DNA of 64,000 bases from Saccharopolyspora erythraea NRRL 2338 (lineage in GTDB: Bacteria; Actinomycetota; Actinomycetes; Mycobacteriales; Pseudonocardiaceae), in contig NC_009142.1 of the NCBI RefSeq assembly GCF_000062885.1, positions 3,089,584 to 3,153,583 of the forward strand, read 5' to 3'. Position 1 is the stretch's first letter. The number at the start of each line of letters is the position of its first letter. Shown here one piece after another: positions 49,557-62,729 of the stretch. The position numbers and the translations under genes were made by a program. The notes below the pieces were generated by a model that saw only the letters and a program-made list of their open reading frames with translations, ran no database searches and was not told where the DNA came from.

Positions 49557-52500
49557 ATGCTGCGTACGGAGCTCATTCGGCCGCTGCCCGAGCTTCTGCG
49601 GTCGCACGCCTCCCGCCTCGAGGACAAGATCGCCTTCCGCGACTCCCGGCTGAGCGTGAGCTACGCCGACCTGGAGCTGCGCACCCGGCGGCTCGCCGGA
49701 CACCTGGCCGATCTGCGGCTGCAGCCCGGCGACCGCGCGGCGATCCTGCTCGGGAACCGGGTGGAGGTGGTCGAGAGCTACCTGGCGATCCTGCGGGCGG
49801 GCGCGATCGGGGTGCCGCTCAACCCGAGGGTGACCGAGACAGAGCTCTCCTACCTGCTGGAGGACAGCGGTGCGCGGGTGGTGATCACCGACGAGGCGCA
49901 CGTCGAGCAGGTCCGCGCCGCGGGCGGCGAGGTGCGGCGGATCGTGGTCGTCGGGGACGGGCCCGTGCCCAGCGGCACGGTGTCCTACGCCCACCTGGCC
50001 GCCACCGACCCGGCCACCCCCGCCCGGGACGACCTGCCCCTCGACGCTCCGGCGTGGATGCTCTACACGTCGGGCACCACCGGCAGGCCCAAGGGCGTGC
50101 TGTCCTCGCAGCGCAACTGCCTGTGGTCGGTCGCGGCCTGCTACGTGCCGATCCCAGGACTGTCCGAAGAGGACAGGGTCCTGTGGCCGCTGCCGCTGTT
50201 CCACAGCCTTTCCCACATCGCGTGCGTGCTGGGCGTGACCGCGGTGGGGGCGACCGCGCGAGTGCTCGACGGCTTCTCGGCCGACGAGGTCCTCAACGCG
50301 CTGCGCGAGGACTCCACCACGTTCCTGGCCGGGGTGCCCACGATGTACCACCACCTGGTGCGCGCGGCGGGGGAGCAGCGGCTCTCGCTGCCGGACCTGC
50401 GGATGTGCCTGGTGGGCGGCGCTATCACCACCGCGGCGCTGCGGCGCTCGTTCGAGCAGGCCTTCGGCGCCCCGCTGCTGGACGCCTACGGCAGCACCGA
50501 GACCTGCGGGTCGATCACCATCAACTGGCCGACCGGAGCGCGGGTCGAGGGCTCGTGCGGACTGCCGGTGCCGGGTCTGGGTGTCCGGCTGGTGGATCCG
50601 GAGACCCTGGTCGACGTCGCCACCGGCGAGGAAGGCGAGGTCTGGGTCCAGGGCCCGAGCGTCATGGCCGGCTACCACGACCAGCCCGAGGCCACCGCCG
50701 CGGTCTTCCACGACGGCTGGTACCGCACCGGCGACCTCGCGCGGCGCGACGAGAGCGGCTACTTCACGATCAGCGGCCGGATCAAGGAGCTGATCATCCG
50801 CGGTGGGGAGAACATCCACCCCGGTGACGTCGAAGCCGTGCTGCGGTCGGTACCGGGCGTTGCCGACGCGGCCGTGGTCGGAAAGCCGCACGAGGTGCTG
50901 GGCGAGGTCCCGGTGGCCTTCCTGGTCCCGGGACCCGAGGGGCTGGACCCCGAGCACGTGCTGGCGGTGTGCAGGCAGGAGCTCTCCTACATCAAGGTGC
51001 CCGAGGAGCTCTACGAGATCGACCGGGTGCCGCGGACGGCCTCGGGCAAGATCACCCGCCACGTGCTGCTCGACCGGCCCGCCCGGCTCAGGGCCGCCGG
51101 CGGCGCGCGGCACGAACTGCTCTTCCAGCTCGACTGGCTCCCGCTGCCGACCGTCCCGGCGTCTCGGTCCGCGGCCCGGCACTGGGCCGTCGTCGGCCCG
51201 GACGTCTTCGGGGTGGCCGATTCGCTCGACTCGCAGGGGAGATCGGTCGACCGGTACTCCGATGCCGACGAGCTCGTCGAGTCGGTAGATTCGGCGGAGG
51301 CTGCCCCGGAGGTCACCGTGCTCCAGGTGGCGGGCACGACCGCCGGTGGGGCCGCGTCGCCGGCGGAGGAAGCGCGCGACCGCGTGCGCGTGGTCACCGA
51401 GCAGGCGGAGTCCTGGCTCGGCGACGAGCGCTTTGCAGAAGGCACTCTTGTCGTGGTGACCAGGGCGGCGGTGGCCGCCGGACCGGACGACGAGGTGTCC
51501 GACCTGGTCGCGGCGCCGGTGTGGGGCGCGGTGCGCGCCCTGAGGGCAGCCCACCCGGGACGGGTCGTCCTGGTGGACCTCGATGACGGCGGCTCGGCGG
51601 CGGCACTGGCCGAAGCCGTCTCCTCGGCCGAACCCGAGCTCCTGCTGCGGTCCGGTGTGGCGCTGCGGCCCCGCGCGAACCGGGTGGCCGCGACCGGGGG
51701 TTCGCGGCGCCCGTTCCAGCTCACCTCGCGGGACACCGCGCTGGTCGCCGGGGCCGACGGCGTGGTGGCCGCGACGGTGGCGCGGCACCTGGCCGCGGTG
51801 CACGACGTGCGCCGGTTCCTCCTGGTGAGCCGAGGCGGGGACGCCGACCTCGCGGCTCGGGAGCTGCGAGCGGAGCTGACCGCCGCCGGTGCCTCGGTCG
51901 CACTGGTGGCCTGCGACGTGGCCGACCGGGACGCGCTGGCCGGACTGCTGGCCGGGCACCGTCCGGCCGCGGTGGTGTTCGCCGCGGGTGCCGGACGGGA
52001 AGCGCTGTCCACCATGGACGGTGCGCTCAACCTCCACGAGCTGACCCTGGACGCCGGTCTCAAGGCGTTCGTGCTGCTCTCCTCGGCCGCCGGGACGCTC
52101 GGCGGGGCCGGCAGCGCCGACGACGCGGCCGCAGGCGTCTTCCTCGACGCCGTCGCGCGGCATCGCGCGGCACGTGGACTGCCCGCGCTCTCGGTGGTCT
52201 TCGGACCCGGCGAGCACGAGGACTGGTCCGTGCCGGCGGGCGTGGGCAGGCTGACCGGCCGGGAGCACGCGGCGATGTTCGACGCCGCGCACCTCGCCGA
52301 CCGCACGTCCGTGCTAGCCCTGCGGCCGGACTCGACCGCGGTCGGGTCGGGGTCCCTCCCGCCCGCGTTGCGCGACCTGATCGACGTGCCGGTCCAGGCC
52401 GACGCGCCCGACGACGGCACGGTGTCCGAACTGCGCGAGCGGCTGGCGCCGTTGTCGCGCGACGAGCAGGACCGGACGCTGGTGGAGCTCGTGCGCGGCG

Positions 52501-61961: not shown

Positions 61962-62729
61962 TTGTTCAGCGTGGAAACCTACCTGTCGGGCATCGGATGC
62001 TCCGGATCCGCGGCGCCCGGGCGGGATGCGTTGCGAGAACTGCACAAGAAGCACGTGATGTCGCTGCCCTACGACAACTCCCGGCTCGCCGAGCAGGTCG
62101 CCGACGGGATGAACGGCGGGAACATCGACCTCGACGCCGCGTTCGACGAGGCCGTCGTGGCGCGCCGGGGAGGCCACTGCGGAGAGCTCGCGGGGCTGTT
62201 CCACCGGCTGCTGGACGAGCTGGGCTTCGACGTCTCGTTCCTGATGGGCGGTCTGTGCGGCCCGGGCGGCACCTTCGGCCCGGACCTGGCGCACGTGTTC
62301 CTCGGAGTCCGGCTCGACGGCGAGCTGTGGCTGGCCGACGTCGGGTTCGCCGGCCCTGGGTTCCTGGAGCCGGTGCGCGTGTCGCCGGAGGTGCAGGAGC
62401 AGTACGGCTGCCAGTACCGCGTCGTGCCCCGGGGCGGCTACCAGGTGCTGGAGCGCAGGGCGCGCGGAGGTGACTGGCACGGCCTCTACCGGTTCGACCC
62501 GCGGCCGCGCGAGCTGGCCGAGTGGAACCCCGGCGGGGACGACGCCGACGACGCCGAGCAGTTCGGCATCGGCGTGGTCATCCGCTCCCGCGCCACGGAG
62601 AACGGGCAGTGGGTTCTGCTCGGCAGGCGGCTGACCACAGTGGACAACGGTGAGGAGCGGATCAGGGTGCTGGTGAAGAGCGCCGACCACGACGAGGTCG
62701 TGCGCGAGATCATGGGGGGAGCGGCCTGA
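61962..62729 (+). CDS. rifF: Arylamine N-acetyltransferase-type amide synthase (RifF)
   Basis: 255 residues from TTG 61962, 6 bases after the PKS stop; this start places the triad at Cys73 (RRGGHCGELAG), His111 (DLAHVFLGV) and Asp126 (WLADVGFAG), the numbering known for RifF. AGGAGG lies 11 bases before TTG; GTG 61971 is an alternative. NAT-fold amide synthases release ansa polyketides by forming an amide with the AHBA nitrogen. Directly following the only PKS gene, it is the expected chain-release enzyme. The overlap with the next gene is 1 base (TGATG). Confidence 0.93.
   Translation: MFSVETYLSGIGCSGSAAPGRDALRELHKKHVMSLPYDNSRLAEQVADGMNGGNIDLDAAFDEAVVARRGGHCGELAGLFHRLLDELGFDVSFLMGGLCGPGGTFGPDLAHVFLGVRLDGELWLADVGFAGPGFLEPVRVSPEVQEQYGCQYRVVPRGGYQVLERRARGGDWHGLYRFDPRPRELAEWNPGGDDADDAEQFGIGVVIRSRATENGQWVLLGRRLTTVDNGEERIRVLVKSADHDEVVREIMGGAA

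What the first reader, a model, noticed from the sequence alone, without database searches (positions are those of the whole stretch)
49557..62729. A two-module, AHBA-primed miniature ansamycin-type PKS
The gene holds an AHBA-type CoA-ligase loading module and just two extension modules, then the RifF homologue. The C-terminus lacks a docking domain and a thioesterase. All known ansamycin PKSs I can recall have about seven or more extension modules over several proteins. The set predicts aryl-CH2-CH(CH3)-CO-CH2-CO-thioester, an AHBA triketide product class I do not recognise.
Basis: partly seen in the sequence, partly recalled or inferred. Interest (0 to 1): 0.88.

Follow-up and report, generated by a model that had tools for sequence, protein, structure and literature searches.

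The report
Two-module AHBA polyketide line, likely quinone
The erythromycin-producing bacterium carries a complete but very short version of the assembly line that normally makes large ring-shaped ansamycin antibiotics; the gene was already listed in print without a product, but here it proves to belong to a cluster family also seen in Actinomadura relatives, with neighbours that point to a small quinone rather than a large ring.

Summary
One gene (49557-61955) encodes an AHBA-type CoA-ligase loading module and two extension modules (KS-AT-DH-ER-KR-ACP; KS-AT-ACP). A RifF/GdmF-type amide synthase follows. The nearest other KS is about 101 kb away; there is no docking tail or thioesterase. As an annotation it is known: SACE_2875/SACE_2876 (pks3) of Saccharopolyspora erythraea, printed in 2012 with the same domain string.

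New here: the two-module line is a conserved cluster family. The other genome held of the genus has the whole cluster. Three Actinomadura-family genomes have the same two modules with amide synthase, FAD monooxygenase, methyltransferase, TetR, lipocalin-like protein, WrbA quinone reductase, hydroquinone-reductase-type GST and AHBA genes; a fourth has matching fragments. The family's KS2s group with some second-module KSs, rifamycin-type ones included, so the line resembles an ansamycin front end. Its amide synthases form one clade with altered active-site flanks.

Best reading: a triketide AHBA quinone, not a macrolactam; the skeleton fits the known 2-amino-6-hydroxy-7-methyl-1,4-naphthoquinone. 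Product and release are untested.

The parts
49557..51056 (+). PKS loading A domain (CoA-ligase type, AHBA PKS clade)
   Evidence: PF00501/PF13193; 73-98% identical to A domains of four other AHBA PKSs
51315..52750 (+). Loading degenerate KR-like region (KR0) and ACP0
   Evidence: SpnB_Rossmann/KR matches; no nucleotide motif, no catalytic Tyr; the A-KR0-ACP layout recurs in many of the 80 AHBA PKS loci
52758..58880 (+). Extension module 1: KS-AT(methylmalonyl type)-DH-ER-KR-ACP
   Evidence: Pfam and motifs; KS1 in one clade with KS1 of five relatives
58947..61955 (+). Extension module 2: KS-AT(malonyl type)-ACP and stop; no docking domain or TE
   Evidence: Pfam, motifs, tail comparison; KS2 nests with second-module KSs of other lines
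61971..62729 (+). RifF/GdmF-type amide synthase (252 aa), triad Cys70-His108-Asp123, flanks His69/Gly71
   Evidence: PF00797; GdmF is the best PDB match, 221 bits; LPYDNSR motif and census; clade 100/99 in 44 rows, 99/97 in 48
62729..64000 (+). FAD monooxygenase (MhpA-like); the gene runs on to 64324, beyond the window
   Evidence: PF01494, NF004829 above cut-off; family clade 100/99
48072..49403 (-). RifH-type class II DAHP synthase
   Evidence: TIGR01358 above cut-off
46989..47978 (+). GST-fold protein of the glutathionyl-hydroquinone-reductase family, found beside the two-module PKSs
   Evidence: PF13410; PDB matches to yqjG and 4uss; 68-75% in the four Actinomadura-family members
46108..46809 (+). 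RifM-type phosphatase
   Evidence: TIGR01454 above cut-off; the only match above cut-off in the genome
45021..46115 (+). RifL-type oxidoreductase
   Evidence: PF01408
43966..45024 (+). RifK-type AHBA synthase
   Evidence: PF01041; 74-79% to RifK of AHBA loci outside the genus
42652..43509 (-). RifN-type kinase (ROK family)
   Evidence: PF00480
41621..42655 (-). RifG-type aminodehydroquinate synthase
   Evidence: PF01761; TIGR01357 matched below its cut-off
40807..41619 (-). RifI-type shikimate dehydrogenase homologue
   Evidence: PF08501
38069..40780 (+). LAL-type LuxR regulator
   Evidence: PF13191 and PF00196
37179..37619 (-). RifJ-type class II dehydroquinase
   Evidence: PF01220
35824..37044 (-). 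MFS transporter, possible edge of the cluster
   Evidence: PF07690/PF00083; present in G001

Best explanation
This is a complete AHBA-primed assembly line, equivalent to the first part (loading, module 1, module 2) of an ansamycin PKS, that makes a small triketide quinone and no macrolactam. Shown by sequence: AHBA genes, loading ligase, two modules with intact motifs, an amide-synthase homologue with an intact triad, and a conserved cassette with quinone-type enzymes. Inferred: AHBA is extended with methylmalonyl (fully reduced) and malonyl (not reduced) to aryl-CH2-CH(CH3)-CO-CH2-CO-S-ACP. The FAD monooxygenase hydroxylates the ring para to the phenol, giving a hydroquinone/quinone. The activated methylene adds to the quinone, as in rifamycin naphthalene formation (recalled), and decarboxylation gives an aminonaphthoquinone of the 2-amino-6-hydroxy-7-methyl-1,4-naphthoquinone type. 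The amide synthase releases the chain in trans, to water or to an external amine. The methyltransferase, WrbA and the hydroquinone-reductase-type GST tailor or handle the quinone.
For: Anatomy and isolation. Conserved family: G001 (same genus) has the whole cluster at 90-99% protein identity over 16 genes, dN/dS 0.09-0.42, PKS 0.18. A. flavalba (415-kb contig), G785 (7.4-Mb contig) and G715 (1.5-Mb contig) have exactly two modules with RifF, FMO, MT, TetR, GST and AHBA genes; A. rubrisoli has matching parts on separate contigs. WrbA (68-70%) and the lipocalin-like protein (50-55%) are in 4 of 4 of these. The five KS2s form one clade (100) inside a set of 8 (96) and of 14 (91), all second-module KSs, rifamycin-type ones included; fourth KSs of four-module lines fall elsewhere. 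RifF and FMO trees each put the six members in one clade. The residue after the catalytic Cys is Leu or Gly in 6 of 6 members, and Tyr, Phe or His in 35 of 38 others and in 4 of 4 added later. GdmF residues 72 and 74 at that place differ from NATs and widen its cleft, and GdmF couples thioesters to aminophenols (PMC11903869, passages). Quinone enzymes: WrbA above cut-off, GHR-family GST, FMO. The C11 aminonaphthoquinone is a known natural product (PMC9686540, passages).
Against: No product, expression or biochemistry is available here. AT2 is malonyl type in the window and G001 but methylmalonyl type by motif in A. flavalba and G715, and AT1-like in G785; module 1 has no DH motif in those three. 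So products differ across the family and this exact naphthoquinone cannot be common to all. An amide-synthase homologue is kept, which hydrolysis and decarboxylation would not need. FMO and GST are not diagnostic: four-module AHBA clusters have the FMO too (53-57%), G1448 has it at 60%, and a GHR-type GST lies near three of the four-module loci. Not all second-module KSs join the KS2 group: those of most four-module lines form another group, and the tree is a FastTree with local support.
Confidence: 0.5

Rival explanations
1. The amide synthase joins a chain to a second AHBA (an anilide) or joins two chains head to tail (a cyclic dimer, a macrodilactam), which would make it an ansa-like compound built from two triketides.
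For: A one-chain lactam ring is too small (inference); the triad and the PYDN amide-synthase motif are kept while the residues flanking Cys differ; GdmF couples truncated thioesters to aminophenols (PMC11903869, passages); release of a chain onto another AHBA is proposed for tropansamycin 7 (PMC13000494, passages).
Against: No direct data; the quinone-handling cassette is not specifically explained.
Confidence: 0.25
2. Simple hydrolytic release and spontaneous decarboxylation to an aryl ketone (C11H15NO2, 193.110), then quinone formation without ring closure.
For: A beta-keto acid is expected from module 2; the tailoring enzymes are of quinone type.
Against: Does not explain the retained amide synthase.
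Confidence: 0.15
3. One or both modules iterate, or the chain is passed to a distant PKS, so the product is a longer, ordinary ansamycin.
For: Iteration cannot be seen in sequence; other modular PKSs exist in the genome.
Against: No docking tail; the nearest other PKS cluster is about 263 kb away; one AHBA cluster by TIGR01454; two modules are kept in five contiguous loci.
Confidence: 0.08
4. Non-functional remnant of a larger ansamycin cluster.
For: An industrial erythromycin overproducer carries a frameshift in SACE_2875 and a missense in SACE_2876 (PMC3359211, passages), so the strain can do without it.
Against: Motifs intact; the same two modules in three Actinomadura-family genomes; purifying selection between G000 and G001.
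Confidence: 0.02

Closest known systems
pks3 (SACE_2875/SACE_2876) of Saccharopolyspora erythraea NRRL 2338
   Same: Same protein lengths (4132, 252 aa) and same domain string: it is this cluster (PMC3359211 Table 3, passages)
   Different: The passages seen give no product, call SACE_2876 an AHBA synthase, and treat SACE_2888 as pks3-associated; no wider family is described in them
Pentaketide ansamycin lines (cebulactam, shengliangmycin, microansamycin, tropansamycin types)
   Same: AHBA genes, CoA-ligase loading, RifF-type amide synthase; in the four-module loci seen here also KR0 and an FMO of the same family
   Different: Four extension modules, usually over several proteins with docking tails; macrolactam products (PMC13000494 and PMC13302746, passages)
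Rifamycin-type front end (loading, module 1, module 2; RifF; Rif-Orf19)
   Same: Methylmalonyl first, then a non-reducing malonyl module (recalled for rifamycin); KS2 in the same group (91); FMO chemistry could form a naphthoquinone
   Different: This line stops after module 2, has KR0 in the loading module and a fully reducing module 1; the rifamycin PKS has ten modules (PMC13254586, passages)
GdmF, geldanamycin amide synthase (PDB 8btm)
   Same: Best PDB match (221 bits); Cys-His-Asp triad; PYDN motif in place of the NAT FENL motif
   Different: GdmF has Val72 and Tyr74 beside Cys73; the window enzyme has His and Gly there, the four Actinomadura-family members Asn and Leu
2-amino-6-hydroxy-7-methyl-1,4-naphthoquinone from a hygrocin-producing Streptomyces
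   Same: Carbon skeleton equals AHBA + propionate + acetate minus CO2
   Different: Found in a strain that makes large hygrocins (PMC9686540, passages); not linked there to a two-module PKS in the passages seen

Membership tests
S. erythraea pks3 cluster | 4132-aa PKS with CL-ACP; KS-AT(P)-DH-ER-KR-ACP; KS-AT(A)-ACP, followed by a 252-aa RifF homologue | tested here: met
   against PMC3359211 passages; a 4576-aa frame elsewhere in the genome fits SACE_2630
Ansamycin PKS (macrolactam) | AHBA biosynthesis genes and CoA-ligase loading module | tested here: met
Ansamycin PKS (macrolactam) | RifF-type amide synthase next to the PKS | tested here: met
   the residues flanking the catalytic Cys differ
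Ansamycin PKS (macrolactam) | Enough extension modules to span the meta positions (four or more in the published sets seen) | tested here: not met
   two KS, complete C-terminus, no PKS nearby
Ansamycin PKS (macrolactam) | Macrolactam product | not testable with these tools
   needs chemistry
Naphthalenic (rifamycin-like) chromophore pathway | First extender methylmalonyl, second malonyl and unreduced | tested here: met
   AT motifs and domain order in the window; A. flavalba and G715 differ in the second AT
Naphthalenic (rifamycin-like) chromophore pathway | FAD hydroxylase of the Rif-Orf19 type | tested here: inconclusive
   MhpA-like FMO next to RifF; Rif-Orf19 itself was not compared
Xenobiotic arylamine N-acetyltransferase | (I/V)(P/A)FENL motif | tested here: not met
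   LPYDNSR in the window; motif from PMC11903869 passages
COMT-type O-methyltransferase | Catalytic His at the position of RedM Ser253 | tested here: not met
   window sequence GHLLIDW, Ile at that place; role of the His from PMC10784701 passages

The most novel reading that the evidence does not exclude
A conserved class of miniature ansamycin lines exists in which two modules and a re-shaped amide synthase make an AHBA triketide, either by intermolecular amide formation (anilide or cyclic dimer) or as a free aminonaphthoquinone: a product class with no member assigned to such a cluster in the papers seen.
Probability: 0.35. Interest if true: 0.75.

Novelty: new variant of a known kind. Interest (0 to 1): 0.55.

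Why it matters
S. erythraea is a model producer, and its pks3 cluster stands in the paper seen without a product. The conserved cassette gives a concrete, small, testable product prediction with masses. The family also holds the shortest AHBA assembly lines that I could place in contiguous DNA of several genomes, with amide synthases that can hardly be doing the usual macrolactam closure; both are useful for studying and engineering ansamycin release.

Tried and rejected
One-module lines. Streptomyces rugosispiralis appeared to have a one-module AHBA PKS with RifF and FMO. The strain makes geldanamycin (PMC10525797, passages), so a collapsed draft assembly is the likely cause and I rejected it.

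GST as a marker of the family: rejected as exclusive. Three four-module loci also have one about 11 kb beyond RifF, and close homologues are common (106 of 341 genomes at E<=1e-100).

Downstream operon 69394-75978 as part of pks3 (PMC3359211 treats SACE_2888 as pks3-associated): not supported. Its GTP cyclohydrolase, WD40, FGE and RibD proteins gave no placed hit in the Actinomadura-family loci, though they are present in G001.

Cys+1 residue as a unique marker: weakened; 3 of 38 other sequences also lack Tyr, Phe or His there.

Further members. RifF of G785 was run on 394 genomes drawn from the family of S. rugosispiralis and 354 of the family of Catellatospora vulcania: 7 and 2 genomes matched at E<=1e-60, best identity 49%. 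Of 4 fetched, 2 are four-module lines (G952, G432), G1448 has at least three KSs on both strands, and G1160 shows no PKS in the 40 kb taken. None is a two-module line, and G1448 stays outside the clade. But window and Actinomadura enzymes are only 50-52% alike, so this does not exclude further distant members. G702 (RifF and GST on different contigs) was not looked at.

Literature: no product for pks3; AHBA triketide and small-ansamycin terms. Most subscription papers are not in that library, and the 2007 genome paper was not read. The paper behind PDB 22ow was not found and not searched for by name (searched RedM).
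Full report
What is there. The window is 3089584-3153583 of a single-contig genome of 8,212,805 bp. That size (recalled), the 4132-aa and 252-aa proteins and a 4576-aa PKS frame elsewhere fit Saccharopolyspora erythraea (protein lengths from PMC3359211, passages). The gene at 49557-61955 encodes A-KR0-ACP, KS-AT-DH-ER-KR-ACP and KS-AT-ACP. Core motifs are intact and the two AT motifs are of methylmalonyl and malonyl type (motif meanings recalled). The loading KR0 is degenerate. The chain stops 46 residues after the last ACP serine, near the terminal subunit of S. hirsuta (51) and shorter than five internal subunits of four-module relatives (70, 112, 115, 115, 116). The nearest other KS is 101 kb downstream in a 440-aa frame.

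Surroundings. AHBA genes lie at 37179-49403 with a LAL regulator and a GST-fold protein. After the PKS come the amide synthase, an FAD monooxygenase (to 64324), a methyltransferase (64321-65328), TetR (65321-65932), a lipocalin-like protein (66108-66491) and a WrbA quinone reductase (66505-67119). Only one AHBA phosphatase in the genome passes its cut-off.

Already in print. PMC3359211 (passages) lists SACE_2875 as pks3 with this very domain string and SACE_2876 as gdmF. A 2008 figure legend lists an S. erythraea protein among putative amide synthetases (PMC2764864, passages). The anatomy is therefore known; searches naming the species with AHBA, ansamycin or pks3 showed no product. PMC13000494 (passages) counts seven pentaketide scaffolds, so the seven-module statement is wrong.

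A conserved family. RifF was searched in 2 genus and 390 family genomes, and an A-domain profile against a collection of one genome per species (126 relatives, best 80 kept). G001, the other genome held of the genus, has the full cluster; 16 genes compared are full length within two residues, dN/dS 0.09-0.42. The A-domain scan gave A. flavalba. A GST search in 341 genomes of its family, then RifF in 22 genomes with a GST match (4 of 22 match), gave G785 and G715. These three have exactly two modules; A. rubrisoli has matching fragments on separate contigs. FMO 58-63%, MT 61-64%, TetR 63-70%, WrbA 68-70% and lipocalin-like 50-55% are shared by 4 of 4. G785 also has a peptide-type ABC importer between RifM and GST; the others have genes of similar size there, not tested. 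Of 15 lines in which A and RifF both lie in the DNA I fetched, 5 have two KSs, 2 have one (one rejected as an assembly artefact) and 8 have four; in 2 of the 8 RifF is not next to the PKS. These were chosen for closeness, not at random.

Origin. In a FastTree of 87 KS domains the six family KS1s form one clade (96), among first- and third-module KSs of four-module lines. The five KS2s form one clade (100) within sets of 8 (96) and 14 (91) rows, all second-module KSs, rifamycin-type ones included. Second-module KSs of most four-module lines form another group, and fourth KSs lie elsewhere again. So the line looks like the front end of an ansamycin PKS rather than one with its middle deleted. 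RifF (44 and 48 rows) and FMO (20 rows) trees each give one clade for the six members (100/99, 99/97, 100/99).

Mechanism. Shown: genes, motifs, conservation. Inferred: the product chain, ring hydroxylation, quinone chemistry and release. A one-chain lactam would be a 9-membered meta-bridged ring, which I judge unlikely. The family amide synthases differ at the residue after the catalytic Cys: Leu in 4, Gly in 2; Tyr, Phe or His in 35 of 38 others and 4 of 4 more. In GdmF the residues flanking Cys73 differ from NATs and the cleft is wider, and GdmF couples thioesters to aminophenols (PMC11903869, passages), so release onto an external amine is possible. WrbA, the GHR-type GST and the FMO belong to families acting on quinones, hydroquinones or phenols. 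The methyltransferase is nearest to PDB 22ow and RedM and has Ile where most relatives have the catalytic His, so N-methylation is as likely as O-methylation. With module 2 unreduced, ring closure on the quinone would give the skeleton of 2-amino-6-hydroxy-7-methyl-1,4-naphthoquinone (PMC9686540, passages).

Against. A. flavalba and G715 have a methylmalonyl-type second AT by motif, G785 an AT1-like one, and none of the three has a DH motif in module 1, so one product cannot serve the whole family. FMO and GST also occur with four-module lines. A wider RifF search found no further two-module line but could not exclude one. Nothing here shows expression.

Other passages seen for background: PMC13302746 (cebulactams), PMC4256081 (ansamycin KS monophyly), PMC11213898 (NAT genes in clusters).

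Verdict. Observation confirmed; interpretation partly supported; annotation already known; the family and the active-site divergence are what this analysis adds; the product is open.

Noticed in passing
69394-75978 in window numbering, beyond the window (L012:7394-13978): GTP cyclohydrolase II, WD40 protein, FGE-like protein, RibD, PLP decarboxylase and CysE in a row: resembles a toxoflavin-type azapteridine cluster (resemblance recalled). The first four are present in G001 at 95-100% and gave no placed hit in the Actinomadura-family loci.
   Followed up: partly
L049:13389-19520 (G354): One-extension-module AHBA PKS (2044 aa) followed by RifF and FMO on a 5.78-Mb contig; its congener S. hirsuta has four modules; assembly collapse not excluded.
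   Followed up: partly
L107 and L147-L148 (Streptomyces rugosispiralis): Apparent one-module AHBA PKS in a strain reported to make geldanamycin: probably a collapsed draft assembly.
   Followed up: yes
L069, L072, L073, L082, L083, L093, L101, L119: In 8 of 49 genomes with AHBA-type loading PKSs the RifF search found nothing or only weak NAT-like matches; 4 of 30 more had none at E<=1e-30. These lines may be released in another way, or the drafts are incomplete.
   Followed up: no
L178:7539-10499 (G715): FAD monooxygenase and methyltransferase lie in one 986-aa frame in this family member.
   Followed up: no
L012:2321-3328 (64321-65328 in window numbering): The methyltransferase is a close relative of PDB 22ow (440 bits); the G785 and A. 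flavalba homologues align to it beyond the methyltransferase part, in its N-terminal extension.
   Followed up: partly
29223-32927: CHAT-TPR protein (1234 aa), with no evident link to the cluster.
   Followed up: no
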